This document shows, piece by piece, positions 916 through 14,111 of a stretch of DNA of 14,111 nt. Both the position numbers and the translations under genes were made by a program. Position 1 is the first letter of the stretch, and each line of letters begins with the position of its first letter. Under the pieces are notes generated by a model. It made no database searches, was not told the origin of the DNA, and saw only the letters and a program-made list of their open reading frames with translations. Source of the stretch: Anaerolineae bacterium (GTDB lineage Bacteria > Chloroflexota > Anaerolineae > B4-G1); the NCBI GenBank assembly GCA_030612585.1, contig JAUWNP010000114.1, forward strand, positions 1-14,111, written 5' to 3'.

Positions 916-917
916 TC

Positions 918-1049
918 GCCCTGGATCAGAATTACATCGCCCAACAGGAGTTCGATCCAATCTACACCCAAGCAACAAAGACCAAAAGCCTAATCGGGGG
1001 CTTCATCCGCTACCTGGAAGGAAGGTCCAAAGTCCAACGTCGGACATAG
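918..1049 (+). pseudogene. 3' remnant of a four-helix-bundle (S23-like) protein gene
   Basis: Frame 3 between the two threonine genes reads ALDQNYIAQQEFDPIYTQ, then SLIGGFIRYLEGRSK, and stops at 1047-1049. This strongly resembles the C-terminal helix pair of the small four-helix-bundle proteins related to the 23S rRNA intervening-sequence protein (pattern: xxxGYIxxxxFxxLYxxAxxxxxMIxGLIRYLxxR). Only about 44 residues of a family normally near 120 aa remain. No start codon or ribosome site precedes them, and the same frame upstream only overlaps the dehydrogenase gene. I read it as the leftover 3' end of a gene deleted or replaced by recombination. The family match is from memory, and the fragment is short. 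Confidence 0.6.
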
Positions 1050-1073
1050 GACGTAGGACTTAGGACTTAGGAC
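1039..1073 (+). repeat. 7-bp tandem repeat (NTAGGAC)
   Basis: Four copies of ATAGGAC/GTAGGAC/TTAGGAC/TTAGGAC run head to tail at 1046-1073, preceded by a degenerate GTCGGAC. Just upstream, GTCCAA occurs twice. The array starts inside the end of the four-helix-bundle remnant and stops eight bases before the kbl Shine-Dalgarno region. Confidence 0.85.
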
Positions 1074-1095
1074 ATATCATCAAAGGAGTAAAACG

Positions 1096-2292
1096 ATGGG
1101 AGACAAACTAGATTTCATGCGACAAGAGATCGAGGCCGCCCAGGCCGAAAAGCGATACATCAACATCCGCACGATGGATTCCCCCGCCGACGGCTGGATG
1201 GTGGTGGACGGCAAGAAGGTGCTGAACTTCTGCACCAATAACTACCTGGGGCTGGCCAACCACCCGGCACTCAAAGAGGCTGCCAGGAAGGCCGTCGCAG
1301 AGTGGGGTGTAGGCCCTGGCGCGGTGCGCACCATCGCCGGCACCCAGCGGCTACACGTCGAGTGCGAAAGACGCCTGGCCGAGTTCAAGCGTGTCGAGGC
1401 GGCCCTGCTGGTGCAGAGCGGCTTTTGCGCCAACCAGGCCGCCATCCCACCACTGGTGGGCCGGGACAAGAAGGCCGGCGTCCAGGACGTCATGTTTTCC
1501 GACCGGCTCAACCACGCCAGCATCATTGACGGCGCACGGTTGAGCGGGGCCAAGATCATCGTCTTCGAGCACCGCGACCCGGCCGACCTGGAGGCCAAAA
1601 TCAAGGAGCACCTGCCCAAATTCCGGCGCGGGCTGATGGTCACCGACGGCGTGTTCTCGATGGATGGCGACGTCGCGCCGCTGGACAAACTGTACGAGGT
1701 GGCGGCCAAATACGACGTGATGACGATGGTGGACGACGCCCACGGCGAAGGCGTGCTGGGCCAGGGACGCGGCATCGTGGCCCACTTTGGACTGGAGGGC
1801 AAGTTCGACGTCGAGATCGGCACCCTCTCCAAAGCCTTCGGTGTGATGGGCGGCGTCATCGCTGGCAAAAGTGTGGTAGTGGAATACATCCGGCAGAAAG
1901 CGCGCCCCAACCTATTCTCTAGCGCACTCACCCCGGCCGACACTGGCGCATGCATGGCCGCCGTGGAGTACGTCGAGGAGCACCCGGAACTGGTAGAGAA
2001 GTTGTGGGAAAACGCCGAGTATTTCAAGGCCGGCATCAAACAACTGGGCATAGACACCGGCCGCACCCAAACCCCCATCGTGCCGGTGATGCTGGGCGAC
2101 GTGACACTGGCCAAGGAATTCAGCGCCAGGCTGTTCGAGTACGGCGTGTTTGCTATGGCGCTGGGCTTTCCCACTGTTCCGAAGGGTCAGGCGCGCATCC
2201 GCGTGATGAATACCGCCGCGCACACACGCAAGGATCTGGACCAGGGGCTAGAGACCTTCGAGAAGGTCGCGCGGGAACTGGGTGTGATCTAA
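1096..2292 (+). CDS. kbl: Glycine C-acetyltransferase (2-amino-3-ketobutyrate CoA ligase)
   Basis: PLP-dependent enzyme of the alpha-oxoamine synthase family. It splits 2-amino-3-ketobutyrate with CoA into glycine and acetyl-CoA, completing threonine breakdown started by the upstream dehydrogenase. At 398 aa it has the normal family length. Visible landmarks are the N-terminal NFCTNNYLGLANHP (44-57), GAVRTIAGT (75-83), LNHASIIDG with the PLP-stacking His140 (138-146), the VDDAHGEG motif (212-219, Asp and His contacting the cofactor), and TLSKAFG with the Schiff-base lysine at Lys246. The ATG at 1096 is preceded by AAAGGAG with good spacing. The 180-nt gap to the dehydrogenase holds only a gene remnant and repeats, so co-transcription is likely. 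Identity as kbl rather than the paralogous bioF, hemA or spt rests on the pairing with threonine dehydrogenase. Confidence 0.95.
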   Translation: MGDKLDFMRQEIEAAQAEKRYINIRTMDSPADGWMVVDGKKVLNFCTNNYLGLANHPALKEAARKAVAEWGVGPGAVRTIAGTQRLHVECERRLAEFKRVEAALLVQSGFCANQAAIPPLVGRDKKAGVQDVMFSDRLNHASIIDGARLSGAKIIVFEHRDPADLEAKIKEHLPKFRRGLMVTDGVFSMDGDVAPLDKLYEVAAKYDVMTMVDDAHGEGVLGQGRGIVAHFGLEGKFDVEIGTLSKAFGVMGGVIAGKSVVVEYIRQKARPNLFSSALTPADTGACMAAVEYVEEHPELVEKLWENAEYFKAGIKQLGIDTGRTQTPIVPVMLGDVTLAKEFSARLFEYGVFAMALGFPTVPKGQARIRVMNTAAHTRKDLDQGLETFEKVARELGVI

Positions 2293-2299
2293 ACCACCC

Positions 2300-2322
2300 G
2301 CGCCGCCGTAAACAGGCGGCGC
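2300..2322 (+). terminator. GC-rich hairpin after kbl, terminator-like
   Basis: GCGCCGCC (2300-2307) and GGCGGCGC (2315-2322) form a perfect 8-bp stem with a 7-nt loop, 7 nt after the kbl stop. No T-tract follows, so intrinsic termination is uncertain. It may instead protect the mRNA 3' end. Confidence 0.45.
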
Positions 2323-2371
2323 TGGGCCAGAGACCACTCAACACCGGCTCTCTTCAGGCCAGTGGCATCAG

Positions 2372-2404
2372 GGCGGATGGGGCGGCCCCAGTGGCAGATC
2401 CGCC
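2372..2404. repeat. Nested inverted repeat in the kbl-vapB gap
   Basis: GGCGGAT (2372-2378) pairs with ATCCGCC (2398-2404). Inside, GGGG (2379-2382) can pair with CCCC (2386-2389). CCAGTGGCA occurs twice as a direct repeat (2360-2368 and 2388-2396). No gene is visible in the 270-nt interval that contains it. Function unknown. Confidence 0.5.
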
Positions 2405-2429
2405 TCGAAAATAGCCTCCTTGACGGTTC

Positions 2430-2475
2430 GGAGTCCGCAACTTGTTGCGGCTATCCCGAACAAGTTCGGGACTCC
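2430..2475. repeat. Palindromic repeat: two hairpins inside a longer inverted repeat
   Basis: The outer arms GGAGTCC (2430-2436) and GGACTCC (2469-2475) are complementary. Within them are two short hairpins, CCGCAA-CTTG-TTGCGG (2435-2450) and CCCGAA-CAAG-TTCGGG (2455-2470). The two 17-nt half-arms are also complementary to each other apart from two adjacent bases. This layout is typical of dispersed REP/MITE-like palindromes, but no second copy is present in the window. Confidence 0.7.
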
Positions 2476-2527
2476 AATGCGCGTTTTCGTCATTGAGGGT
2501 GAGCCGAGAATCATGGCGACTGCTCCG

Positions 2528-2556
2528 TTGACGTTCCCTATCCTACGTGCTATAAT
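2528..2556 (+). promoter_or_regulatory. Sigma70-type promoter for the vapBC-like pair
   Basis: TTGACG (2528-2533), a 17-bp spacer, then a perfect TATAAT (2551-2556). The predicted transcription start, 6-8 nt after the -10 box, falls on 2563-2564, which is the antitoxin ATG. The mRNA would therefore be leaderless. Confidence 0.8.
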
Positions 2557-2562
2557 TGGGTT

Positions 2563-2874
2563 ATGATGAGTAATGAAGAAAAGCCAGTGCGAGAGTCAAC
2601 AACACCTTACGTGGTTGAGCCACAGATGGAAGTACACATCCCTCTGTCAGCGCTATTCAAAGCGGCGGAGTGCCTGAGCGAGGATGGACTGCGCCAGTTG
2701 CGGCAGTGGGCGGATGAACGACTGGCTGCCCTCCCCGCTGAGGCAAGCATCCGAGAGGGAAAGCCCGGACAGACGCTGACCCGCTTTGCCGGATGGATCG
2801 CTCCGGATGACCTGGCCCTGATACAGGAGGCCATTGAAAGCGGCTGTGAACAGGTAGACCTTGATGAGTGGTAG
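2563..2874 (+). CDS. Antitoxin of a VapBC-type pair (VapB-position protein)
   Basis: A 103-aa soluble protein encoded directly upstream of, and overlapping, a PIN-domain toxin gene, so it most likely neutralises that toxin and represses the shared promoter. I do not recognise a classical AbrB, RHH or Phd fold in the N-terminus. Residues 22-56 (MEVHIPLSALFKAAECLSED...) look helical, and the acidic C-terminus GCEQVDLDEW resembles tails of uncharacterised PIN-partner proteins that I know from cyanobacteria and Chloroflexota. ATG codons stand at 2563 and 2566 with no Shine-Dalgarno, since the -10 box lies only 6 nt upstream. This suits leaderless translation. The gene overlaps the toxin ATG by 11 nt (2864-2874), so translation is probably coupled. 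Confidence 0.7.
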   Translation: MMSNEEKPVRESTTPYVVEPQMEVHIPLSALFKAAECLSEDGLRQLRQWADERLAALPAEASIREGKPGQTLTRFAGWIAPDDLALIQEAIESGCEQVDLDEW

Positions 2875-3253
2875 AATCCTGCTCGACACCAACATCATCA
2901 TCGCGCTGTTTAGGCAGGATGATGCAGTGCTGAATCATCTACAAGGAGCTGCCGAGGTCTTCGTTCCGGTTATCGCCATAGGCGAGTTGTACTATGGGGC
3001 ATACAAATCCAGGTGGAGCAGCAAGAACATCCAGCGTGTCCAGGAGTTCACTGCTGCCAATACAGTATTGGCGTGCGACGGTCAGACGGCCGTGGCTTAT
3101 GGCCGCGTGAAGAACGAGTTACGCCAGAAGGGAACGCCCATTCCCGAAAACGACATCTGGATCGCAGCCCTGGCTTGTCAGCACGGTCTTGTGCTAGCGA
3201 CGAGAGACAAGCACTTCGACACGGTGGACGACCTGCGCATCGAAGCGTGGTAG
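2864..3253 (+). CDS. vapC: VapC-family PIN-domain ribonuclease toxin
   Basis: A 129-aa PIN-domain protein, expected to be a Mg2+-dependent endoribonuclease toxin acting on tRNA or rRNA. The four acidic positions of the PIN active site are visible: Asp8 in LLDTNIIIALF, Glu41 in AIGELYYGAYKS, Asp97 in PIPENDIWIAALA and Asp115 in LATRDKHFD. The length is normal for VapC. The ATG at 2864 overlaps the end of the antitoxin gene. A TTG at 2861 would add one residue and is less likely. The gene ends 5 bp before the stop of the convergent SDR gene. All key residues are intact, so the toxin is likely functional. Its RNA target cannot be read from the sequence. Confidence 0.93.
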   Translation: MSGRILLDTNIIIALFRQDDAVLNHLQGAAEVFVPVIAIGELYYGAYKSRWSSKNIQRVQEFTAANTVLACDGQTAVAYGRVKNELRQKGTPIPENDIWIAALACQHGLVLATRDKHFDTVDDLRIEAW

Positions 3254-3258
3254 CCAAC

Positions 3259-5037
3259 TTAAACTTTGGCAAGTCTCAACTGACGTCGCAGCAACAGCGG
3301 TCCTAACAGATCCATGAGCCAACCAAAGCACAACTCAACCCAAGGGACAAGCACAAACAGGCGGGGCACATACGCCCCCCGGCGGGGCTTTTGGAGCAAG
3401 GCCCAGATGCGATTGACCACCACTTCTGGCCTCACGCCAAACTTTTTGGCTGGCATAGGCAGACCGGCAGGCTGGGCCGAGGCCGTGTCGAAAAAACCTG
3501 TGGCCACCGCTCCTGACTTGACCACGCTTATATGAACGTTCGTGCCACGCAACTCGCGATAGAGGGCAGTCGTCAAGGTATCCAGGAAAGACTTGGTCGC
3601 ACAGTATAGTGCGACTCCCTGGGCTGGCAGACTGCCAGCAATAGATCCAATGTTGATGATGTGACCGCTGTTGCGCGTCTTCATGTCCCGCAGGAACAGC
3701 AACGTCAAATGCACAACAGCGGTCATATTGATCTGTATCATCTGCCGGGCGAGTGCCCACGGCATTTCAGAGCCGAATCCGTACCAGCCAATACCGGCGC
3801 TGTTGATGAGCACGTCTGCTGCGCCATAGGCAGCGCGAACCTCCTCGACGACGCGCAGACGATCCTGCTCGTCTGTGAGATCGGCGGCGATCACCAGCGC
3901 TTCTCCGCCAGCCTCCCGTATCTGAGCCGCAAGATCCTCTAGACGATCCTTGCGCCTGGCCACCAGCGCGACATTGAGCCCTTCCTGGGCCAACTTCCTG
4001 GCAGTTGCCGTGCCTATGCCACCTGACGCACCGGTGATAATCGCCACTTTCCCTCGCCAGCCCGCCCTCACCTTTCCCGCATCCTTCAGGTAAGGGGACT
4101 TCCCCAGCAGCCAACGGCGGACGACGGGGCGAAATAGCCAGATCAAGTACCGCCGGTATCCCAGCAGCGCGATCATCTCCTGAATATAATCCCCCAGATC
4201 ACGCCGCTGGTAGTTGAGAAGCCTTTGGCTTTCGCTGGTATCCACCCAGTCCGTGCAAAAAGGTGTCGAACCAAACGCTTCTTCCGGCAGTCTGCCCACT
4301 CCCACAGCATCCAGTATGCGCCCCACGATCTCGCGATAGTAATACTGGCAAGACTCACCACCACCGATCAGCAGGGTTTTCCCCCATACCTCCTCGCTGC
4401 TTATGGCGTTGGCGAGCGCCAGCCCCACGTCTCGCGTGTGCACGTACTCCATGCGGTTGTCCAGGGGAACGTCAAACATCCCCGGGTCCAGTTGTATCGC
4501 CAATGGCAGCGTAGCAGACAGCCTGAGGATGGCCCACTCCAACCCGGATGACTTGACCATTTGCTCGCACTCTACCTTGTGATACGAATAGTGTTCAACA
4601 GGTTGTACCGGGTCCGAAACCGTTCTGGGAGGTGGCTGATCCTGCGTCCTACCGTAGACGTGGTACGTCGAGGTAAAGATGATCCTGGGCGGTCTAGGCA
4701 GGGCTTTCATCGCGTTGAGGAGGTTTCGGGTACCTCCCACGTTGATCTCCCTGGCCCAATCGGGCCGCTCCTCGGAATCGACTCCGGTAGCCGACATTTT
4801 GGGGATGATAAACGCCAGGTGAACCACGACGTCTTGATCGCGCACCGCAGCGGCGACCTCTTCTGGGCAACGCAGATCTCCCCACACCACCTCCACCTGA
4901 CCCCTGAACCTGCGGGCGGTCTTTTCATTCGCCCGGGTCTTGAGATCGAAACATCGCACCGTGTGACCTCGATTGACCAACTCTTCCAGCGTACTCGTTC
5001 CAACGTTTCCGAAGGCTCCTGTCAACAAGACGTTCAT
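3259..5037 (-). CDS. Fused protein: extended SDR (epimerase-like) plus classical SDR oxidoreductase
   Basis: A 592-aa protein with two Rossmann domains. Residues 1-290 form an extended SDR (NAD-dependent epimerase/dehydratase family): TGAFGNVG (6-13), VVHLAF (71-76), STYHVYG (123-129) and YxxxK at Tyr150/Lys154. Residues 328-545 form a classical SDR: TGASGGIG (335-342), INSAG in place of NNAG (411-415), catalytic Ser465, Tyr478 and Lys482. The linker (about 291-327, YLIWLFRPVVRRWLLG) and the C-terminus (558-583, rich in L, V and W) are hydrophobic and amphipathic, which suggests membrane association, perhaps with a lipid or polyprenyl substrate. The substrate is unknown. The ATG directly follows the TetR stop codon (TAAATG), so the two genes form one operon and the regulator probably controls this enzyme. 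A GAGGAG lies 12 nt upstream of the ATG. Both active sites look intact, and there is no frameshift. Confidence 0.85.
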   Translation of the reverse strand: MNVLLTGAFGNVGTSTLEELVNRGHTVRCFDLKTRANEKTARRFRGQVEVVWGDLRCPEEVAAAVRDQDVVVHLAFIIPKMSATGVDSEERPDWAREINVGGTRNLLNAMKALPRPPRIIFTSTYHVYGRTQDQPPPRTVSDPVQPVEHYSYHKVECEQMVKSSGLEWAILRLSATLPLAIQLDPGMFDVPLDNRMEYVHTRDVGLALANAISSEEVWGKTLLIGGGESCQYYYREIVGRILDAVGVGRLPEEAFGSTPFCTDWVDTSESQRLLNYQRRDLGDYIQEMIALLGYRRYLIWLFRPVVRRWLLGKSPYLKDAGKVRAGWRGKVAIITGASGGIGTATARKLAQEGLNVALVARRKDRLEDLAAQIREAGGEALVIAADLTDEQDRLRVVEEVRAAYGAADVLINSAGIGWYGFGSEMPWALARQMIQINMTAVVHLTLLFLRDMKTRNSGHIINIGSIAGSLPAQGVALYCATKSFLDTLTTALYRELRGTNVHISVVKSGAVATGFFDTASAQPAGLPMPAKKFGVRPEVVVNRIWALLQKPRRGAYVPRLFVLVPWVELCFGWLMDLLGPLLLRRQLRLAKV

Positions 5038-5655
5038 TTATTTAACTGTCTCCTCTGTAGATTTTATACCCTCCAAGAGCATCTGCATGCCCTCTTCCAC
5101 AACCTGTCCCCAGTCAGTTCCTTGGGGATCGAGCAGCCCTTGCAGTACCAGGCCGACAGCCATAGAGACGATGACCTGGGCCGCCATCTCGGGATCAACA
5201 GGCCGCAGCGTACCCTCGGCAATGCCGGCCTCGATCATGCCGGCGAAGAAGTCCCGATACCGCCGATAGGGAGCGATGGTCGCTTGCCAGACCGCCGGGT
5301 CGTGCGCGGCCTGGGTCCAGAACTCCAGTAAGATCGGGAGTTGCCCGCCCGCCACCTGGAAGACCTGCCGAGCCGTCCCGGCCATGCGCAGCAGCCCCTC
5401 CGGGACGGTCTCCGCCCCAGCGCGAACCGCCTCCAGTTGCGTATCCAGCCCCGCCAGCCAGCGATCCAGGAGTTCCAGGAAGAGCGCCTGCTTGCTGGGA
5501 AAGTGATGGTAGAAGGCTCCCTTGGTCACGCCAGCGCGGCGACAGATCTCCGCCACGCCGGTACCGTCGTAGCCGTGGTGGGCGAAACACTCCCCCGCTG
5601 CTTCCAGAATACGAGCACGGGTCTCCTCTCCTCGCCGTTGTGGATTCATCTCCAT
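5038..5655 (-). CDS. TetR/AcrR-family transcriptional regulator
   Basis: A 205-aa repressor of the TetR family. The N-terminal HTH spans about residues 12-58 (ARILEAAGECFAHHGYDGTG, then AEICRRAGVTKGAFYHHFPS), with the recognition helix around TKGAFYHHF. The rest is the helical ligand-binding and dimer domain (for example AAQVIVSMAVGLVLQGLLD). It probably represses its own promoter through the palindrome 5672-5689 and thereby the fused SDR gene, which begins at the next base after its stop. The ligand is unknown and may be a substrate or product of that enzyme. Start choice: ATG at 5655 gives 205 aa. ATG at 5649 (MNPQRRGEETR) sits 6 nt after GAGGGAG and is at least as plausible. Confidence 0.93.
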   Translation of the reverse strand: MEMNPQRRGEETRARILEAAGECFAHHGYDGTGVAEICRRAGVTKGAFYHHFPSKQALFLELLDRWLAGLDTQLEAVRAGAETVPEGLLRMAGTARQVFQVAGGQLPILLEFWTQAAHDPAVWQATIAPYRRYRDFFAGMIEAGIAEGTLRPVDPEMAAQVIVSMAVGLVLQGLLDPQGTDWGQVVEEGMQMLLEGIKSTEETVK

Positions 5656-5671
5656 CTCCCTCTCTCATAGG

Positions 5672-5689
5672 ATACCGACCGGTTGGTAT
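5672..5689. promoter_or_regulatory. Palindromic operator for the TetR regulator
   Basis: ATACCGACC/GGTTGGTAT is an 18-bp palindrome with one mismatched pair. It lies between the minus-strand -10 box and the TetR start, covering the predicted transcription start. This is the usual position for autoregulation by a TetR repressor. Confidence 0.8.
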
Positions 5690-5690
5690 G

Positions 5691-5719
5691 ATTTTACCAC
5701 AGACATCCCTAACTGTCAA
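5691..5719 (-). promoter_or_regulatory. Sigma70-type promoter of the tetR-SDR operon
   Basis: On the minus strand, a perfect TTGACA (5719-5714), a 17-bp spacer and TAAAAT (5696-5691). The operator follows one base after the -10 box. Confidence 0.85.
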
Positions 5720-5721
5720 GA

Positions 5722-5781
5722 CCAACCAACTAACTAACTAACCAACCAGCCAACTAACCAACTAACCAACTAACCAACCAA
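5722..5781. repeat. Tetranucleotide array (CCAA/CTAA), 15 units
   Basis: Fifteen consecutive 4-bp units, CCAA or CTAA with one CCAG, begin 3 bp upstream of the -35 box of the tetR promoter. On the minus strand they read TTGG/TTAG. CCAACC-type steps resemble the operator half-site GGTTGGT. Such arrays are prone to slippage. Confidence 0.9.
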
Positions 5782-5828
5782 CCCCCACTTCCCAAATCCA
5801 CCCAACCTGGGTATAATCAAATGTGGTA

Positions 5829-5926
5829 ACCCTTGCGAAGGTTAGAGGATGATTCTCAAGTCGAAAGTGACTTCAATAGGCAAAATCCATATCACCAAGA
5901 AGGCTATTCGCAACCTTCGCAAGGGT
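5829..5926. repeat. 98-bp element with perfect 15-bp terminal inverted repeats
   Basis: ACCCTTGCGAAGGTT (5829-5843) and AACCTTCGCAAGGGT (5912-5926) are exact reverse complements, separated by 68 nt. Shorter stems lie inside (AAGTC/GACTT and AATAG/CTATT), so a transcript could fold into a branched structure. A TATAAT at 5812-5817 precedes it, with no convincing -35 box. The element sits in the probable leader of the L,D-transpeptidase gene. It could be a small non-autonomous mobile element or a structured leader. The rest of the 325-nt gap 5656-5980 holds the tetR promoter, its operator and the tetranucleotide array. Confidence 0.65.
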
Positions 5927-5980
5927 AGCTGAGTAGTAGCACGTGCGATTGGATTAGCGGGCGGGAGAGGAGAGGAAACA

Positions 5981-6940
5981 ATGCGCAGGATATTGACACT
6001 CGGTATAGTGCTCGCACTGACCCTGGCGCTGGCAGCACCGGCCTTTGCTCAGGGGACCACCGTTCACGTCGTGCAGCGGGGAGAGAACCTGTTCCGCATC
6101 GCGCTGCGCTACGGGGTGACAGTGAACGCGCTGGCGGCAGCCAACGGCCTGAGCAACACCAGCCGCATCTACGTCGGGCAGCGATTGACCATCCCAACTG
6201 GCGGCAGTCCCGGCCCGACCCCGCCATCCTCGGGCGTACACGTCGTGCGACCAGGGGAAAACTTGTTCCGCATCGCACTGCGCTACGGCATCACGTCCCA
6301 GGCGCTGGCGGCGGCCAACGGCATCGCCAACCCCAACCGCATCTACGTGGGACAGCGGCTGGTGATTCCAGGCTCTGGGACCACGCCCCCCACCCCATCA
6401 GGCCAGACCTACACCGTGCGACGTGGCGACACACTCTCATCCATCGCCCGGAGGTTCGGCGTCTCGACATGGGCGCTGGCGCAAGCCAACGGCATCCGCA
6501 ACCCCTCGTTCATCTACGTCGGGCAGGTGCTGCGCATCCCCAGCGGCGGAAGCCCCGCCCCACCCTCCCCGCCTCCTGCCCCAACCAGTGGCCGCTGGAT
6601 TGACGTGAACCTCAGCACGCAGCGGGTCACCGCCTACCAGGGGAACACAGCCGTGCGCAGTACGCTCGTCTCGACCGGCCTCCCGCGCACGCCGACGCCC
6701 ACCGGCCGGTATCGCATCTACGTCAAGTACGTCTCCACCCCCATGTCCGGCCCCGGCTACTACCTGCCCAACGTACCCTATACGATGTACTTCTACCGGG
6801 GCTATGGCCTCCACGGCACCTACTGGCATTCCAATTTCGGCCATCCCATGAGCCACGGCTGCATCAACCTGCCCACGCCCGAGGCACAGTGGCTCTTCTA
6901 TTGGGCCTCGGTGGGGACGCTGGTCAACATCCACTACTGA
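5981..6940 (+). CDS. Secreted L,D-transpeptidase with three LysM domains
   Basis: A 319-aa exported cell-wall enzyme. A signal peptide (residues 1-23, cleavage likely after AFA) is followed by three LysM peptidoglycan-binding domains (about 28-72, 86-130, 143-187) separated by Pro/Gly/Ser linkers. A YkuD catalytic domain follows (205-319). Its motif is complete: His278 in GLHGTYWH, then SHGCINLP with His292 and the nucleophile Cys294. It should cross-link meso-diaminopimelate-type stem peptides (3-3 links) or attach proteins to the wall. LysM1 and LysM2 are almost identical at DNA level around 6085-6115 and 6258-6288, which indicates a recent internal duplication. LysM3 has diverged. ATG 5981 is preceded by AGAGGAGAGG. 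There is a long leader and no obvious operon partner. Confidence 0.95.
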   Translation: MRRILTLGIVLALTLALAAPAFAQGTTVHVVQRGENLFRIALRYGVTVNALAAANGLSNTSRIYVGQRLTIPTGGSPGPTPPSSGVHVVRPGENLFRIALRYGITSQALAAANGIANPNRIYVGQRLVIPGSGTTPPTPSGQTYTVRRGDTLSSIARRFGVSTWALAQANGIRNPSFIYVGQVLRIPSGGSPAPPSPPPAPTSGRWIDVNLSTQRVTAYQGNTAVRSTLVSTGLPRTPTPTGRYRIYVKYVSTPMSGPGYYLPNVPYTMYFYRGYGLHGTYWHSNFGHPMSHGCINLPTPEAQWLFYWASVGTLVNIHY

Positions 6941-6947
6941 CGCGGGG

Positions 6948-6973
6948 CGTGAAACGTGAAACGTGAAACGTGA
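6948..6973 (+). repeat. 7-bp tandem repeat (CGTGAAA)
   Basis: Three full copies of CGTGAAA and a partial fourth begin 8 bases after the L,D-transpeptidase stop. Confidence 0.9.
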
Positions 6974-7024
6974 TATAGAATTACTCTACAACATTTGCGT
7001 TGTCCGCGAGAATCATGATCTGCT

Positions 7025-7046
7025 ACTTGCAGACTTGCAGACTTGC
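7025..7046 (+). repeat. 8-bp tandem repeat (ACTTGCAG) just before topA
   Basis: Two full copies of ACTTGCAG and a partial third occupy the region from 36 to 15 nt upstream of the topA ATG, close to where a ribosome site would be. Confidence 0.85.
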
Positions 7047-7060
7047 GACTTTGCCGCGCT

Positions 7061-9079
7061 ATGGATCTGATTATCGTCGAATCGCCCACCAAAGCCCGCG
7101 CGCTGCGGGGCTTCCTGGGACGCGGCTACCGAGTGCTGGCCTCGATGGGACACATCCGGGACCTGCCGCCGAAGAAACTGGGTGTTGACGTGGACCGCAA
7201 CTTCCGGCCCACCTACCACCTCCGCCGTGGCGCGGGGAAGACCGTCAAGCGGTTCAAGGAGGCGGCCTCGGAAGCCTCCACCATCTACCTGGCCACCGAC
7301 CCCGACCGGGAGGGCGAGGCCATCGCCTGGCACGCCCTGTGGGCGATGAAGGTCGGGGACAAGCCGGTGCGCCGCATCACCTTCCACGAGATCACGCCCG
7401 AGGCCGTAAAGACGGCCCTCTCCGCCCCTGGCTCCCTCGATATGGATCTGGTTCACGCCCAGCAGGCCCGGCGCGTGCTGGACCGGCTGGTCGGCTATCA
7501 GGTCAGCCCCGTGCTCTGGAAGGCGATCAAAGGCCGCAAGGGGCTCTCGGCCGGGCGGGTGCAGACGGTAGCCCTGCGGCTGGTGGTCGAGCGGGACCGG
7601 GAGATTGAGGCTTTCGTGCCCCAGGAGTATTGGACGTTGGACGCGGAACTTTCAAAAGTGGAGGGAGACACACGCCACTTCCGCGCTCGTCTGGTGCGTA
7701 TCGGCAAGGAAAAACCCGATCTCAAGACTGAGGCCGATGGCGTGGCCATCGTCGAAGCCCTGGAGGGAGCCGACTACCGGGTGCTGCGGGTCAAGCGGCG
7801 GCGCAGGTCCCGGCGGCCCTATCCTCCCTACACCACCAGCACCCTCCAGCAGGACGGAGCCAACCGGCTGGGCTGGCCGGCGGCGAAGACGATGAAGATC
7901 GCCCAGGAACTGTACGAGGGTATCGCGCTGCCGGGCGAGGGAACCGTGGGGCTGATCACCTACATGCGCACCGACTCGACCCACGTGGCCGAGTCGGCCC
8001 AGGCCGAGGCCAGGGAGATCATCGCCCGCTACTGGGGCGAGCAGTACTTGCCGGAGAAGCCGCCGACGTACAAGACCCGGTCGAAGGTCGCCCAGGAGGC
8101 CCACGAGGCCATCCGGCCCACGTCGTCACAGCGCACGCCGCGAGACCTGCGGGAGCACCTGACCCCCGACCAGGCGAAACTCTACGAACTCGTGTGGCGG
8201 CGGTTCATCGCCAGCCAGATGAAGCCAGCCGTCTACAACGTCACCACCGTGGACGTTGCTACCGCGCGGGACGGCTGTGACTTGCCCTACGTCTTCCGCG
8301 CCACCGGGCGGGAACTGATCTTCGAGGGCTTCCTGAAGGTGTATGAGGTCAAGGAGAAAAAACCGGCCGTGGAGGAGGGAGCAGCAGGACAGATACTGCC
8401 CCCGCTGGCCGACGGCGAGCCGCTGGCGCTGCACGGCCTGTTCCCCGAACAACACTTCACCAAACCAGCACCCCACTTCACCGAGGCCAGCCTGATCAAG
8501 GAGTTGGAGAGACTGGGCATCGGCCGGCCCAGCACCTACGCGGGGATCGTCCGCACCATCGTCAAGCGAAAGTACGTGGAGCGCAAGCGCAAGTCGCTCC
8601 TGGCCACGGGATTGGGCTTCATCGTCTGCGACTTCCTGGTGGAGCAGTTCCCCGACCTCTTCGCTGTGGGCTTCACGGCGCAGATGGAGGAAGACCTGGA
8701 CCGCATCGCCCAGGGGGAGCGGCCCTGGGTGGAGGTGCTGCGGGAGTTCTACGACCCCTTCGCGGCGGCGGTGGAACGAGCCCAGGGAACCGCCGTGGCC
8801 GGGTCTGTGACCGTGCCGGAGAGCAAGGGCAAGGCTGTTCCCACCGGCGAAAAGTGCCCGGAGTGCGACGGGGCGGTGGTGGTGCGAGAGGGCAAGTATG
8901 GCCGCTTCCGGGCCTGCGCCAACTTCCCCAGATGTAAGTGGAGCAGCCCCTTCGTGGTAGGCGAGTGCCCGGAGTGTGAAGGTGACCTGGTCGAGCGTAA
9001 GGGGAAGCGGGGAGTATTCTGGGGCTGCTCGAATTACCCGGAATGCCGGTACACGCAAGAGCCACGGCAGGCAGTGTGA
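7061..9079 (+). CDS. topA: DNA topoisomerase I (type IA)
   Basis: A 672-aa enzyme that relaxes negatively supercoiled DNA by transient cleavage of one strand. The TOPRIM domain starts at [12 protein letters not shown] with Glu7 and carries DPDREGE, whose acidic residues Asp80 and Asp82 bind Mg2+. The active-site tyrosine is Tyr301 in [14 protein letters not shown], and EAHEAIRPT (346-354) and GIGRPSTYA (486-494) follow. The C-terminus has two topoisomerase zinc ribbons with four cysteines each: Cys599, 602, 619, 625 and Cys636, 639, 656, 662. ATG 7061 gives the canonical N-terminus. A TTG 18 nt upstream is in frame but would put non-family residues in front. No Shine-Dalgarno is visible. A 7-bp hairpin follows the stop. 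Confidence 0.98.
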
Positions 9080-9109
9080 AACGATGGACTTGGGGCAAGG
9101 GCAGCGTAG

Positions 9110-9128
9110 GGCGGTTTTGCTAACCGCC
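9110..9128 (+). terminator. Small hairpin between topA and the C39-like gene
   Basis: GGCGGTT (9110-9116) pairs with AACCGCC (9122-9128) around a 5-nt loop. AACGAT (9080-9085) and ATCGTT (9133-9138) could extend the fold. There is no T-tract, so termination is doubtful. Confidence 0.35.
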
Positions 9129-9158
9129 ACTGATCGTTCAAATGAGGAGGTAACTACA

Positions 9159-10250
9159 ATGGCTGAAAAGCAACTGTATCAGAACGATCCACGTTGGAAA
9201 GATCAGGTTTTAGGACACGGCGCTGGCGAAACGATTGGCATGTATGGCTGTTTGCTCACCAGCATGGCCATGGTCGCCAATCACTTTGGCGGCGACGAAA
9301 CGGTCGCGTCCTTCAACGAGAAGATGAAGCAAAAAGGTGGGTTCCAGGCCCAGTGGATCAGGCCAGCCCTGATCTCATCCGTGCACCCCAATGTGAAGTA
9401 CCAAAAACGGGTGCAGTGCTCCAGCCAAGCGGCCCCTCTGGGCGAAATTGACGCCGCGTTGGAGGGTGGCTCGCTGATCGTCGTGATGATAGATCGCGCG
9501 CCCGCTCCAGGCGTACAGGGCCACTGGGTTGTCCTGCATGGAAAACAAGGTGATGATTACCTGATGTGGGATCCGTGGGAAAAGAAGGGGGCACCGAACA
9601 CGCTGACAGGGCGGTATAGCCATGGCACGCTGGCAGAAATCATCCAGGACGTCATCTGGTTTGGTGGAGAGCCATCCCCCGAAGCGGCGAAAAAACCTGC
9701 TACGCCGGCGCCCACAGCGGACAAAGAACCAGCCGCAGACTCAGGCAAGCCGTTGGTGGTCCTCCCGATCGTTGATGGGCTAAAGATGCGCCAACAACCC
9801 CAAATCGGTCCATCCAACATCATCAAACAGTTGCCAACAAGCGCCAGGTTAATGGCGTTAGATCCTGCGAGCGCCCGGGCCAAAATCGGCCAGCACGGCG
9901 AGTGGATGCACGTGCGCGACATCGAGGAGGATGAGGGATACGTGGCCGCCTGGTACGTCACGCCCGCCGCTGATCCTTCCCTGGGGGTGCAGAAAAAAGA
10001 GGAGGCCAGCAAACCCACCCCGCCCACCAGACTCGTGGTCAAGACCACAACCGAGGACGTCGCGCTGCGCACGCAACCCCAGGTAGCCGCTGAGACGCTC
10101 ATCGAGCGGTTGCCATTCCCCACGGAATTGCTGGTCACCGAGCCTGGCGACGCAGCGTCAAAGATCGGGGTGTACAACCAATGGCTGCAGGTACGCACCC
10201 TGGACGGCACGAAAGGGTACGTGGCTGCCTGGTACGTGGTCAAGGCGTAG
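9159..10250 (+). CDS. C39-like papain-fold protein with two C-terminal SH3-like domains
   Basis: A 363-aa protein. Residues 5-168 match the papain-like C39_2 type: YQNDPRW near the start, MYGCLLTSMAMVANHFGG with Cys31 as likely nucleophile, GHWVVLHG with His122, and YLMWDPW with Asp138. A Pro/Ala-rich linker (171-197) leads to two bacterial SH3-like repeats (about 203-269 and 298-363). Both end in GYVAAWYV, so they arose by duplication. A role in peptide or peptidoglycan cleavage is plausible, but the substrate is unknown. No signal peptide is present, which is odd for an SH3-type wall binder. The start at 9159 is fixed by GAGGAGG at the right spacing. The longer in-frame extension back to 8976 overlaps topA and has no ribosome site. 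Confidence 0.85.
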   Translation: MAEKQLYQNDPRWKDQVLGHGAGETIGMYGCLLTSMAMVANHFGGDETVASFNEKMKQKGGFQAQWIRPALISSVHPNVKYQKRVQCSSQAAPLGEIDAALEGGSLIVVMIDRAPAPGVQGHWVVLHGKQGDDYLMWDPWEKKGAPNTLTGRYSHGTLAEIIQDVIWFGGEPSPEAAKKPATPAPTADKEPAADSGKPLVVLPIVDGLKMRQQPQIGPSNIIKQLPTSARLMALDPASARAKIGQHGEWMHVRDIEEDEGYVAAWYVTPAADPSLGVQKKEEASKPTPPTRLVVKTTTEDVALRTQPQVAAETLIERLPFPTELLVTEPGDAASKIGVYNQWLQVRTLDGTKGYVAAWYVVKA

Positions 10251-10276
10251 TTACTGCTGCCAGGAGTGTAAACATT

Positions 10277-10315
10277 CCTCCCTCCCCAGCCTTCATTTTG
10301 CCGAGGGGAGGGAGG
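10277..10315 (+). terminator. Strong 11-bp hairpin downstream of the C39-like gene
   Basis: CCTCCCTCCCC (10277-10287) and GGGGAGGGAGG (10305-10315) are perfect complements with a 17-nt loop. They lie 26 nt after the stop. It is probably the 3' end structure of the upstream transcript, although no T-run follows. Confidence 0.55.
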
Positions 10316-10386
10316 TCGGACGACTCAACGATACACTCACGTAAGCAGACAACGGGTGGAAAAAGTCAAGAGCCCGCTGGACTGGT

Positions 10387-10415
10387 TTGACGAGACAGAT
10401 GTGATCGGGTAGAAT
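10387..10415 (+). promoter_or_regulatory. Sigma70-type promoter reading into the cassette-like genes
   Basis: TTGACG (10387-10392), a 17-bp spacer, then TAGAAT (10410-10415). Each box is one base off consensus. The predicted start near 10422 gives a leader of about 115 nt to the ATPase gene and lies just upstream of the core site at 10461, as a cassette-array promoter would. Confidence 0.7.
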
Positions 10416-10460
10416 CCGTGTATAGGTACGTTTGTGGTCACAGATGGGCACAGACATGTA

Positions 10461-10470
10461 GTTGGGCGGC
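10461..10470 (+). other. Putative recombination core site A (GTTGGGCGGC)
   Basis: GTTGGGC fits the integron R' core consensus GTTRRRY. The same 10-mer recurs at 13029-13038 upstream of the other low-GC gene, and its exact complement is rebuilt at 11940-11948 plus 12809 if the group II intron is removed. A weak RYYYAAC candidate (ACTCAAC) lies upstream at 10323-10329. No integrase gene is in view. Confidence 0.45.
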
Positions 10471-10536
10471 AGACTCGGTTTCCCATAAACATTGTGAGCC
10501 AGATGCTTGACACTGCTCATGCCGTTGGAGGGCAAA

Positions 10537-11919
10537 ATGGCAGAGAATCTATTTGACCTCAACATTGAGGAAGTACTAGAGAACTGGGAAGTTGAACACG
10601 CGCTTCGGGAAGTCATCGCCAACGCACTAGACGAGCAAGTTCTGACCAACAGTTCTGAGATAAAAATCTTCAAAAAACGAGGATGTTGGCATATTAGGGA
10701 CTTTGGAAGGGGCCTTCAGATTGAGCACTTCACCTTGAACGAGAACCCTGAGAAACTAAACGCTCTATCAGGTGTCATTGGTAAATTTGGCGTAGGATTG
10801 AAGGATGCCCTTGCTACATTTCACCGAAGGAATGTTGACGTCTACATTCGTTCCTCCTATGGTGCATACCGTCTCAGGAAAGTAGAAAAGTACAACTTCG
10901 GGGATATCGTGACATTGCACGTTGAGTACGATGATTCTCCGACCGGCGTTCGCGGTACCGAGTTTGTATTCCGTGGGGTTACAGACACAGACATAGCAAA
11001 GGCAAAATCTCTTTTTCTGAAGTTTGCCGGAGAAGAAGTTATGGAGACCAATGCCTACGGTCAAATCCTACGTCGTAAAGGCAATGTGGGACGGGTTTAC
11101 ATCCTGGGAGTGTTCGCTAGCGAAGAACCCAACTTCCTGTTTTCGTACAACATTACCAGTCTGACAAAGTCTATGAAGAAGAGACTTAACAGAGAACGTC
11201 TGAATGTCGGCAGAACGACTTATGCTGAACGAATCAAGAGCATTCTCAAGAATTCCAAGAGCAAAGCAGTGCATAGGCTTCTAGTAGAGCAAGTTAGAGA
11301 ACGAGCCACTGGTGAACAGCGCGACGAAATGAGGTGGATCGAGATTAGCCAAATGGCTTTGAACCTTATGCACCAGAAAGCAAAAGTGGTGTATTTTACA
11401 GAGAAAGAAATTCAGTGGCGTCCCAACATCCTGGACAATGCCCGTTCAGACGGATACGAGCCCATTATTGTCACTGAACAGCAAAAGGCGAAACTGAATT
11501 CGCAAATGGCTTCAGGTGGGCCTCAAGTTCGAACTGTGGAGAAGTACGTTGAAGAGTACAATGCAAGCTTTCAGTACCGATTTGTTAACCCCCGGAAGCT
11601 GACCAGAAATGAGCGCCGCGTGTATGGCCGAACGCTCCAGATTGCTGCATTAGTTGGGATAAGTAGAAGACGTGTTCCAGAGATTCGGATTTCAGAGACG
11701 ATGCGAGTTACAAGTGATGACACCGGGGGAGTGTGGGACTCTTCGATTCCAGCAATCGTCATAAAACGCACTAGACTTTCATCTCTTGTGAGCTATGCTG
11801 CTACGCTCTTGCACGAGTTGGGGCACGCGACTTCTGGAACCGTAGATGCCACGCGCGAGTTCGAGCAAGTCTTGACAAATTACCTGGGTCAAACGGCAAC
11901 GGCGGCTATCAAACGATGA
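10537..11919 (+). CDS. GHKL (HSP90/MORC-like) ATPase fused to an HExxH metalloprotease-like domain
   Basis: A 460-aa protein. The N-terminal GHKL ATP-binding fold is clear: N-box EVIANALDE with Glu25, Asn29 and Asp32, G1 box DFGRG (55-59), and G2 box GVIGKFGVG (79-87). A middle part (about 125-350) has basic patches (KKRLNRERLNVGR, 214-226) that could bind nucleic acid. The C-terminus carries LLHELGHATSG with the zinc-protease motif HELGH (426-430), then TREFEQVLTNYLG with Glu441/Glu443 as possible third zinc ligands. I know similar ATP-binding proteins ending in such a motif, but none with an assigned role. ATG 10537 has GGAGGG 4 nt upstream. ATG 10519 and TTG 10507 lack one. GC is visibly lower than in topA, and the gene stands 76 nt after a putative core site, which suggests acquired cargo, possibly defence-related (inference). 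Confidence 0.8.
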   Translation: MAENLFDLNIEEVLENWEVEHALREVIANALDEQVLTNSSEIKIFKKRGCWHIRDFGRGLQIEHFTLNENPEKLNALSGVIGKFGVGLKDALATFHRRNVDVYIRSSYGAYRLRKVEKYNFGDIVTLHVEYDDSPTGVRGTEFVFRGVTDTDIAKAKSLFLKFAGEEVMETNAYGQILRRKGNVGRVYILGVFASEEPNFLFSYNITSLTKSMKKRLNRERLNVGRTTYAERIKSILKNSKSKAVHRLLVEQVRERATGEQRDEMRWIEISQMALNLMHQKAKVVYFTEKEIQWRPNILDNARSDGYEPIIVTEQQKAKLNSQMASGGPQVRTVEKYVEEYNASFQYRFVNPRKLTRNERRVYGRTLQIAALVGISRRRVPEIRISETMRVTSDDTGGVWDSSIPAIVIKRTRLSSLVSYAATLLHELGHATSGTVDATREFEQVLTNYLGQTATAAIKR

Positions 11920-11951
11920 ACTCAACACTTTCAGCAACCGCCGCCCAAGTT

Positions 11952-11986
11952 ATGGTCGCAGGGGGAATCACTTCCCCCTGCGCCAC
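11952..11986 (-). ncRNA. Group II intron domain VI with branch-point adenosine
   Basis: CGCAGGGGGAA and UUCCCCCUGCG form an 11-bp stem closed by a GUGA loop. Below it GUGG pairs with CCAU (one G-U pair), leaving the single bulged A at 11956 on the 3' strand. The linker to domain V is 4 nt. Confidence 0.8.
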
Positions 11987-11990
11987 TCCC

Positions 11991-12024
11991 AAATCGGACG
12001 TGAGACTTTCACCTCATCCGGCTT
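11991..12024 (-). ncRNA. Group II intron domain V (catalytic hairpin)
   Basis: A 34-nt hairpin: AAGCCGGA pairs with UCCGAUUU, then a two-nucleotide CG bulge, an upper stem, and a GAAA tetraloop in GGUGAAAGUC. The AGC catalytic triad is present, but its C faces A at 11994 instead of the usual G. Confidence 0.85.
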
Positions 12025-12305
12025 TTGAGCACCAGGGCCTTTGTCATGGGCAGTACTGGCGGTGATTACTCGACCGCGTTCGCTTGGTAAATGCACCTTA
12101 AGAGATAGATACCCTTTGCGCGAATCCGGCTTTCAGTACGTCTACGGGCACGAAGTGCACGCCGACGCCTGCCATAAAGCTCGATCTCTCTCGGCACCCT
12201 TACCTTCCCTGGCACCCGGCCCACGTCAGCGACAAACCAAAGGTTTGCCCGAGCAGAGGGTCTTGGCCTTCGCCCGTATCCCAGACATTACCCTGGGCAT
12301 TGGCT

Positions 12306-12331
12306 TCCTTCGGCTTCGCTCAGGACAAGCC
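12306..12331 (-). repeat. 26-bp short repeat copy 1 inside the intron
   Basis: On the minus strand this begins GGCTTGTCCTGAGC and ends CGAAGGA. It matches copy 2 (12440-12465, opposite strand) at about 16 of 26 positions, with CCTGAGC and the ends best conserved. Both resemble a short palindromic repeat I remember as widely dispersed in bacterial genomes. Confidence 0.5.
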
Positions 12332-12439
12332 TTGGGCCATCCCTCCCGACAGCGCTTGCGGGTGGTTCCCTGCTCCAGTATTACTGGAGAGCTACTGCCG
12401 GGTTACTCCGTTCCGTGTGTCCATTTTTGCGTGACGTTG

Positions 12440-12465
12440 GGCCTGCCCTGAGCTTGTCGAAGGGA
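12440..12465 (+). repeat. 26-bp short repeat copy 2 inside the intron
   Basis: Begins GGCCTGCCCTGAGC and ends TCGAAGGGA, with CCCT and AGGG arms able to pair. It lies within a part of the intron that may be a peripheral loop. Confidence 0.55.
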
Positions 12466-13087
12466 CGTATGCTTTGCACCGGGTCTCCTTACGGGTGGAT
12501 ACCATACACGACTTGATTGTATGGCCCTAAGACCTTCCCCTTTTGGGGCCTGCCGCTCCCGTCGCGTGGACAGGAGACATCTAGCCAGCGTAGGCAGGTC
12601 CTCCATGACGGCACGTACATACGCAACTTCACTTTCGTTGTCCATAGCCACTTGCTCGACGTGTGACTCCGTTTGGCTCGGAGATGACGCCTTTCTACCC
12701 TTGCACTCCGACGTTTGATGACCAGTCTCCCGCCGTAGGGTAGCGCTCTCTCCCATCCACCAGGGAGGTAGGGGTTGATGTTTCGCACGAAATGTGCTAC
12801 CATCGCACCTACTTGGACACTCAGTTGTCAAGGTACAACATGTTTGAGAAACACGCGACCTTCCCGCCCATCCCCCGGATCACTCCGGTTTCGGGCGAAC
12901 GAATCGCACCCAGCGCTTGCACCCGACGCCGCTACCGCGGCCTTGAATCGCGGCTCGATTTGGCTTTATGGGGCATCTTGAACTAAGGAGCACGTCGCGA
13001 AGGCCGCGGCGCGGGTAAAGCGCGTGCCGTTGGGCGGCCATCCAAGAAGTTTCTACCAGGACAGGAAATGGAGAGAAAACCTTACCG

Positions 13088-14071
13088 ATGAAAGAGGATA
13101 TTCTGAATAGGATTCTCGATTTCTTTGCGAGATCATCGGACTTCAACGGCATACTAGTCCCTGATCTCAGTGCCGAGTTCGAAGCCCCTTGGTCTGAAAT
13201 GCGGGAAATCCTCAGTCAGTTGGTTCAAGAGAACAGAATCAGTCTAGCGTTCGCTAGCCACTCTCTGAATCCTCATATCAAGCGTTTGCCAGACCTTCCC
13301 GTGGATAAACAAATGGCAAAGATACTTGAGGAAGAACTGTATACCACCTGCGCCTATCCAACTTCCGATGTAATTCGCGCCGCTGTTGATTTGTCTGTGT
13401 ACGATACACAGCCATTCACGCAGCGATTAGCACTTGCCGAGCCCCAATTAACACCGGTGTTCTTTGGGCTCGAGGTGCTTGATAGGTACTACAGGGATCC
13501 CCGCTACTACTTCGAGTTCAGTGACTTCGCTGGTTCTATCAGGGTCACTACAGAGCATTATGATTCTCAAGACATTGCTGAACGAGACAAAATCCTACTC
13601 CAGACTTTTGGAATTGGATATGATAGCGGACGCAACCGCGTTGTGGTGGCGTTCCTACGATATTTGGCAGATCTCAGCCCAGAGCACCAGCAGATTTGGA
13701 GTGCATACGTGGTGCACGATGAATGCTCTATGAATAGCGACTATGAGCGAGCAACGATCTACGGCTATTGGCCAGAATACTACTCTGCATATCAAGCCTT
13801 CTTGACAGAGCAGGCAGAGGTCAACAATCTAGCCCATCTGATTGGCAAGCCAAGTCTCTTTAGAGAGACTTTCGAGGAGCAGAGACCTAAGGGGTTCATC
13901 CCAATGCTCCGCCCCACCCGCAAGAATTTCGATGAGTTCATCCATTTGCTTGACAAGATGCTCTCCGAGAATGGCTCTTTGGGATTTCGCATGGGAGGGC
14001 CACATATGGGGGTACTCCGGCTAGGCGAATCGGCGATAGCCCTCAAGGTCAAGGTAAATGCGTTGGAATAG
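13088..14071 (+). CDS. Uncharacterised protein, possibly C-terminally truncated
   Basis: A 327-aa soluble protein with no signal peptide, membrane segment or catalytic motif that I can name. The first 60 residues (ILNRILDFFARSSDF, then SEMREILSQLVQENRISLAF) look like a small helical, possibly winged-helix, domain. Conserved-looking stretches are YYRDPRYYFEFSDFAGSI (134-151), VAFLRYLADLSPEHQQIW (187-204), YGYWPEYYSAYQAFL (225-239) and LRPTRKNFDEFIHLLDKMLSEN (274-295). I recall hypothetical proteins with these blocks that continue well beyond the last one. Here a 32-residue tail of different character follows, so the gene may have been cut by recombination. ATG 13088 has only a distant GGAG (13070). 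It stands 59 nt after core site B and shares the lower GC of the ATPase gene. The last 40 nt of the window (14072-14111) hold no gene. Confidence 0.65.
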   Translation: MKEDILNRILDFFARSSDFNGILVPDLSAEFEAPWSEMREILSQLVQENRISLAFASHSLNPHIKRLPDLPVDKQMAKILEEELYTTCAYPTSDVIRAAVDLSVYDTQPFTQRLALAEPQLTPVFFGLEVLDRYYRDPRYYFEFSDFAGSIRVTTEHYDSQDIAERDKILLQTFGIGYDSGRNRVVVAFLRYLADLSPEHQQIWSAYVVHDECSMNSDYERATIYGYWPEYYSAYQAFLTEQAEVNNLAHLIGKPSLFRETFEEQRPKGFIPMLRPTRKNFDEFIHLLDKMLSENGSLGFRMGGPHMGVLRLGESAIALKVKVNALE

Positions 14072-14111
14072 AGTTGTGACCCTGGTAATGCCATAACAGC
14101 GCCGCTTAATC

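What the first reader, a model, noticed from the sequence alone, without database searches (positions are those of the whole stretch)
10461..13038. Intron excision recreates the exact complement of two GTTGGGCGGC sites: integron-like cassette boundaries
GTTGGGCGGC occurs at 10461 and 13029, each 59-76 nt before a low-GC gene. Joining 11948 to 12809 makes GCCGCCCAAC, its perfect complement, 20 nt after the first gene. The 7-bp cores fit attC RYYYAAC and GTTRRRY. About 0.03 chance copies of a 10-mer are expected in a window this size on both strands. Group IIC-attC introns are known to sit in attC sites opposite to the cassette genes, as seen here, and this one lies exactly between the G and TT of the bottom-strand core. 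This points to a cassette array in a lineage where integrons are little described.
Basis: partly seen in the sequence, partly recalled or inferred. Interest (0 to 1): 0.85.

Follow-up and report, generated by a model that had tools for sequence, protein, structure and literature searches.

The report
Intron-interrupted integron cassette boundary (attC)
Two genes in an uncultured Chloroflexota bacterium are separated by a recombination site of the integron gene-capture system, and a group II intron, a mobile ribozyme element, has inserted into that site.

Summary
The sites are real: GTTGGGCGGC occurs exactly twice (0.04 expected). A covariance model built without the window finds it (31.9 bits) and nothing in 1.38 Mb of topA control loci. 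Related genomes carry integrases (73 of 298) and attCs; a gene 1 homologue is also followed by an attC-like site. Gene 1 is most likely an integron cassette. No integrase or second complete attC lies on this contig. The group IIC-attC label is doubtful: the reverse transcriptase in a sister intron is nearer a chloroplast-like one, though a genome with a bottom-strand copy also holds a class-C-like one of unknown linkage. 14 of 18 intron 5' ends in relatives lie in the other strand, in the L'' box: the new part.

The parts
10461..10470 (+). Left cassette boundary: R'-type core GTTGGGC plus GGC; cassette would begin at TT (10462)
   Evidence: Exact 10-mer; no attC model hit to its left
10537..11919 (+). 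Gene 1, cassette gene of 460 aa: weak HATPase match (E 0.027, below cut-off) and an HELGH motif (read by eye) near the C-terminus; function unknown
   Evidence: homologues in 4 of 298 class genomes
11940..11948 (+). First 9 letters of R'' (GCCGCCCAA) of the attC; the tenth, C, is 12910
11949..12909 (-). Group II intron, 961 nt, no reverse-transcriptase ORF seen; 5' GTGCGATTCGTT at 12909, 3' ..ATAAC at 11949
   Evidence: Alignment of the window with 6 relatives, exon junctions, ORF list
11949..12026 (-). Domains V-VI of the intron
   Evidence: Rfam RF00029, 51.8 bits
12910..13038 (+). Rest of the attC: last C of R'', spacer, L'', loop, L', spacer, R'
   Evidence: Model R2 without the window: 12905-13038, 31.9 bits, E 1.7e-6
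12921..12930 (+). L'' box ACCCG-A-CGCC with the extrahelical A at 12926
   Evidence: Fold, alignment columns 21-30
13008..13016 (+). L' box GGCGCGGGT
13029..13038 (+). R' core GTTGGGC plus GGC; also the start of the next cassette
13088..14071 (+). Gene 2, second presumed cassette gene, 3' part replaced: residues 1-300 match homologues of mostly about 422 aa, the rest does not

Best explanation
The stretch is an integron cassette junction. Gene 1 is a cassette bounded on the left by a GTTGGGC core (10461) and on the right by its attC (11940-11948 plus 12910-13038, 138 nt), after which the next cassette (gene 2) starts. In an intact attC an integron integrase would bind the folded bottom strand and recombine at the G/TT point (established mechanism, not tested here). 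Here a group II intron without its own reverse transcriptase has inserted into the bottom strand at G|TTGGGC inside R'', antisense to the cassette genes. It separates gene 1 from its site and, by inference, keeps the hairpin from forming, so that gene 1 should be frozen in place. The intron belongs to a family in related genomes that lies mostly inside attC sites and that, on partial evidence, resembles the chloroplast-like (IIB) class more than class C.
For: Intron end: window and 6 relatives share the 5' end at 12909. Bottom-strand fold -43.2 kcal/mol, z -4.2, 0 of 200 shuffles. Model R2, built from 16 other sites: one window hit below E 0.03, 31.9 bits, although R'' is displaced (also found with default filters); 0 matches at E up to 1 in 80 topA loci of 1,380,022 bases, default filters. 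Closest relative genome G001 has an attC that was not in the model (59.8 bits). attC within a few kb of IntI genes in G011, G079 and G194. Gene 1 homologue in G089 (63% identity) has a GTTAGGT core 69 nt before and an attC-like site 41 nt after it. G151 intron removed: attC score 42 with the intron in the same bottom-strand core. RT class.
Against: No intI and no second complete attC in the window; its genome is not held. The 10461 site lacks an attC to its left. The located EBS1 loop of the window intron does not pair with its 5' exon, nor does that of the G151 copy, so the insertion step is not explained. The G089 attC-like site, which was one of the 16 in R2, has degenerate cores and does not fold as an attC at minimum energy (z -0.29); one site of a four-attC contig folds no better than shuffles overall (L152 981-1079, z -0.84, same call). 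The alignment sites were hand-picked from a scan that rewards complementarity, so the covariation is partly circular. The RT class rests on a 111-aa fragment in a sister intron and on a 70%-identical RT elsewhere; the RT found in G151, which has a bottom-strand copy, is nearest GsI-IIC (144 bits, against 92 for 6me0), and that in G271 nearest LtrA, though neither is shown to belong to this intron family.
Confidence: 0.92

Rival explanations
1. A classical group IIC-attC intron in an attC site.
For: Bottom-strand insertion in R'' opposite to the genes, as described for IIC-attC introns (PMC7923331, passages); same core in the G151 copy, GT|TAGGC. G151 also holds an RT nearest GsI-IIC, which might act on its intron in trans.
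Against: RT inside a sister intron scores 77 bits with 6me0 against 56 with GsI-IIC; a 70%-identical RT 200 against 115. 14 of 18 intron 5' ends in relatives are in the top strand of L''. Junction G|TT differs from TTGT/T. The G151 RT locus shows no similarity to the intron family's ribozyme.
Confidence: 0.2
2. A small transposon: GTTGGGCGGC and GCCGCCCAAC are terminal inverted repeats around gene 1, which was moved by a transposase acting in trans.
For: The two 10-mers are inverted around gene 1.
Against: A third copy in direct orientation at 13029 completes an attC with L boxes; related genomes have the same site type near IntI genes. No transposase among the 11 window proteins submitted to Pfam.
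Confidence: 0.03
3. Chance or regulatory repeats upstream of two genes; the hairpin is a terminator or unrelated structure.
For: Both sites lie 59-76 nt before start codons.
Against: 0 of 200 shuffles give two exact copies; 0 of 300 shuffles reach the joined-site score; model hit with no control hits.
Confidence: 0.02

Closest known systems
Integron attC sites of sedentary chromosomal integrons / CALINs
   Same: R''/R' cores RYYYAAC and GTTRRRY, L''/L' boxes with an extrahelical base, bottom-strand hairpin, about 130 nt, position just after a cassette gene.
   Different: Interrupted by an intron; integrase and further sites not visible on this contig.
Group IIC-attC introns (such as S.ma.I2; PMC7923331 and PMC8876359, passages)
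   Same: Intron in the bottom strand of the R'' core, opposite to the cassette genes, separating a gene from its attC.
   Different: Partial RT evidence points to the chloroplast-like class; junction G|TT here (GT|T in G151) against TTGT/T; most sister introns use the top-strand L'' box.
UHB.I2, a IIB1/CL1 intron after an attC in a soda-lake metagenome (PMC7923331, section 7 read)
   Same: Chloroplast-like group II intron in a cassette array.
   Different: UHB.I2 lies after an attC in cassette orientation with poorly conserved exons; here 14 of 18 5' ends in relatives share one place inside attC (12 of them R'' plus 9 nt), and the window copy is antisense.

Membership tests
Integron attC site | Inverted cores RYYYAAC / GTTRRRY | tested here: met
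   GCCCAAC and GTTGGGC, extended to 10 bp
Integron attC site | L''/L' boxes with extrahelical base, bottom strand folds | tested here: met
   the role and place of the extrahelical base are recalled knowledge
Integron attC site | Matches attCs of related integrons | tested here: met
   Model R2 without the window, 31.9 bits; controls empty
Integron attC site | Recombines with an integron integrase | not testable with these tools
   Needs a bench assay
Complete integron | intI next to attI | tested here: inconclusive
   No intI among the 11 window proteins checked; the contig ends and the genome is not held
CALIN | At least two attCs less than 4 kb apart without intI (definition as in PMC9668308, passages) | tested here: inconclusive
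   One attC found in the window; the window ends 40 nt after gene 2
Group II intron | GUGYG..AY ends and domain V | tested here: met
Group IIC-attC intron | Insertion in bottom-strand R'' at TTGT/T | tested here: inconclusive
   Strand and core agree; junction is CTGG/TTGGGC
Group IIC-attC intron | Class C intron-encoded protein | tested here: inconclusive
   The window copy has no RT. The RT fragment in a sister intron and a 70%-identical RT are nearest 6me0, not GsI-IIC; an RT in G151, of unknown linkage, is nearest GsI-IIC
Chloroplast-like (IIB) group II intron | CL-type RT | tested here: inconclusive
   Partial RTs only, no tree built

The most novel reading that the evidence does not exclude
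In Anaerolineae-type Chloroflexota a family of chloroplast-like group II introns, many without their own reverse transcriptase, has become specialised on integron attC sites, with two insertion places: the top strand of L'' (GCGCTT[CG]|CA[CG]C, intron in cassette orientation and so removable from cassette transcripts) and the bottom strand of R'' (as in the window). This would be a second, independent origin of attC-targeting introns beside group IIC-attC.
Probability: 0.45. Interest if true: 0.65.

Novelty: new variant of a known kind. Interest (0 to 1): 0.5.

Why it matters
Integron cassettes are normally mobile; an intron inside attC should fix a cassette in place when antisense, or be spliced out of the transcript when in sense (both inferred). 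An intron lineage outside class C that reads attC would let one ask what in the site (sequence or single-stranded hairpin) such introns recognise, and whether introns shape cassette arrays in a phylum where integrases are common (73 of 298 genomes of one class).

Tried and rejected
Search for an attC left of 10461: none, and the bottom-strand fold of 10251-10470 showed no attC shape. Second attC at the contig end (GCCATAAC.. at about 14091): core does not fit RYYYAAC, gene 2 is chimeric there, so left open. Synteny with the closest topA relative L001: the blastn match covers topA only, so no empty-site comparison. Gene 2 homologue in G119: no attC model match in the 15 kb fetched around it. 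Intron in plasmids: none at E 1e-10. Defence and NCBIfam families for genes 1 and 2: none. EBS1-IBS1 pairing: of 20 rows listed, the loop was located in 9; it pairs over 6-7 nt in 4 (G123, two G079 copies, and G271 with wobble pairs) and not in 5 (window, G151, G269, two G194; for one G194 copy the loop may be mislocated). Full-length RT of the intron family: only partial ones found. RTs in G271 and G151 were tested for class and were nearest LtrA and GsI-IIC; that in G133 was nearest 6me0 and LtrA alike (201 and 200 bits); none of the three is shown to lie in this intron family. First attC scan with loose settings on short loci gave little.

Full report
OBSERVATION. GTTGGGCGGC occurs at 10461-10470 and 13029-13038 and nowhere else in the window; dinucleotide shuffles give 0.04 copies on average and none of 200 gives two. 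The distances to the start codons are 76 and 59 nt, and the complement GCCGCCCAA(C) begins 20 nt after the stop of gene 1. Nine of its ten letters are contiguous at 11940-11948; the intron junction adds only the last C. Gene 1 (0.473) and the matching part of gene 2 (0.483) are poorer in G+C than 1-10250 (0.606).

INTRON BOUNDARY. Rfam finds domains V-VI on the minus strand at 11949-12026. A DNA search of 298 genomes of the class of the closest topA relative (G001, record titled Anaerolineae bacterium) gave homologous introns, and their upstream sequence proved to be conserved too. Aligned, the window and six relatives start together at GTGCGA..CGTT (window 12909) and continue without a break through 12808, where all seven have an internal GGTG(C/A)G. 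The intron is therefore 961 nt, 11949-12909. No RT ORF was seen in it. The five copies with both ends found are 251 to 1188 nt long, too short for a full RT.

attC. With the corrected boundary, 11940-11948 plus 12910-13038 is a 138-nt site. The bottom strand folds at -43.2 kcal/mol, z -4.2, 0 of 200 shuffles as low, with a 10-bp R box, an L box and one extrahelical base; of four comparison sites in the same call z was -3.8, -2.5, -0.8 and -0.3. I aligned it with 16 sites from related genomes. 90.7% of pair cells are standard pairs and 0 of 500 shuffles reach any of the five measures, but 15 of these sites were picked by hand from a scan that rewards complementarity (the hits in L146, L184, L201 and one in L191 were left out) and one, in G089, by eye, so this is partly circular. 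A covariance model of the 16 sites without the window (R2) finds in the whole window one match below E 0.03: 12905-13038 on +, 31.9 bits, E 1.7e-6, the next being 14.3 bits at E 0.037 (filters off; also found with default filters). The same model, default filters, has no match at E up to 1 in the 80 topA loci.

RELATED GENOMES. IntI (TIGR02249) passes its cut-off in 73 of 298 class genomes, but in 0 of the two closest topA relatives G001 and G002. Model R1 (which includes the window and sites from five of these genomes) gives matches at E up to 0.1 in 7 of 8 genomes: G251 22, G194 21, G089 17, G079 16, G133 12, G151 11, G001 2, G002 0; only 150 candidates per genome were scored, so these may be undercounts. 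attCs stand within a few kb of IntI genes in G011:C97, G079:C27 and G194:C44. G001 carries an attC not used in the models (L233 9828-9961, 59.8 bits).

GENES. Gene 1 homologues occur in 4 of 298 class genomes; at least 5146 proteins pass E 0.001 in the large database, where only the 7996 best candidates were scored. The G089 homologue (63% identity) has a GTTAGGT core 69 nt before its start and an attC-like site from 41 nt after its stop, whose left arm shares 22 of 30 letters with that of the window; its cores are degenerate and its minimum-energy fold is not attC-like (z -0.29). It is weaker, but separate, support for gene 1 as a cassette gene. Gene 2 has a homologue in 1 of 298, without an attC model match in the 15 kb fetched. 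No genome of the 298 gave both genes. Gene 2 is chimeric: residues 1-300 match longer proteins (mostly about 422 residues among the 120 listed) at up to 89%, and the rest does not align. The window appears to be a whole contig, since its own protein record gives a longest contig of 14111.

INTRON FAMILY. The 5'-end pattern, made from the copies seen, occurs at 18 places in 9 of 298 genomes (reversed-pattern control: 1 place). In 14 of 18 (ten by pattern, four with core GGCTAAC by eye) the 5' exon is the top strand of attC, R'' plus 7-9 nt (12 of them plus 9); 10 of the 14 end in GCGCTTC or GCGCTTG. Where both exons are on one contig, the 3' exon continues the L'' box and removal gives attC scores of 36 (G079:C32), 42 (G079:C11, a 251-nt remnant) and a weak 25 (G123). 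Of the 3' exons seen alone, one, L154, does not look like attC. The G151 copy is in the bottom-strand core like the window (score 42, GT|TAGGC); L164 and L159 look similar by eye but lack a 3' exon; L167 is unclear. The EBS1 loop was located in 9 of 20 listed rows and pairs with the 5' exon over 6-7 nt in 4 of these 9: G123, two G079 copies and, with wobble pairs, G271; not in the window, G151, G269 or two G194 copies.

CLASS. The RT fragment inside a sister intron (G194:C124; 88% identical to the G079 intron over 766 nt) matches PDB 6me0 best (77 bits) and GsI-IIC RT less (56); the 70%-identical RT of G370 gives 200 against 115. That 6me0 is a Thermosynechococcus chloroplast-like intron RT is recalled; the call shows only 'Maturase reverse transcriptase'. 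Domain V in sister introns of G079 and G133 also matches a plastid-intron family best; in the window that family stays below its cut-off (37.7 against 53). Against this: of other RTs in genomes with such introns, that of G151 is nearest GsI-IIC (144 against 92 bits), that of G271 nearest LtrA and that of G133 nearest 6me0 and LtrA alike. None of these three loci resembles the intron family beyond a 50-nt domain V stretch in the G133 one, but an RT could act in trans. No tree was built. Class C is unlikely but not excluded.

MECHANISM. Shown: one attC, its interruption, the intron's strand and ends. Inferred: that gene 1 arrived as a cassette by integrase action; that the left boundary is an insertion into a non-attC site; that the intron, antisense, cannot leave the cassette transcript and blocks the hairpin; that an RT elsewhere moved it.

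LITERATURE. IIC-attC introns insert in the bottom strand, mostly at TTGT/T in R''; a IIB/CL1 intron after an attC and one IIC intron, not IIC-attC, in a top strand are reported (PMC7923331: passages, section 7). Chloroflexota is listed among integron phyla (PMC8618304 and PMC9668308, passages). ORF-less bacterial group II introns are called rare (PMC4424553, passages). A search for group II intron + attC + Chloroflex gave 0 papers; the listings, and the passages I read from them, hold no report that I saw of chloroplast-like introns targeting the attC L'' box. The library lacks most subscription papers, including three key IIC-attC ones.

Noticed in passing
L160-L163, L166, L168-L176 (intron 5' ends); L151 7857-8923; L197 6258: Sister introns sit in the top strand of attC at nearly one place in the L'' box, in cassette orientation, at 14 of 18 5' ends found.
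   Followed up: partly
window 13988-14111: Gene 2 loses its C-terminal part: after residue 300 the sequence no longer matches its mostly ~422-aa homologues; recombination, deletion or an assembly join.
   Followed up: partly
intron, about 12305-12330 and 12440-12465: Short repeat (CTTCGACAAGCTCAGG type) inside the intron that recurs nearly identically in dozens of the 72 of 298 class genomes with a match.
   Followed up: no
L144 (G175), on both sides of the gene 1 homologue: By eye, a direct repeat of about 60 nt (GGTGGGTGGGATCCGCCAC..) flanks the gene 1 homologue on both sides.
   Followed up: no
window 10537-11919: Gene 1 belongs to a very widespread family (at least 5146 database proteins, several phyla, 10 plasmid records including haloarchaeal ones) with a weak HATPase-like N-terminus and an HELGH motif; function unknown.
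   Followed up: partly
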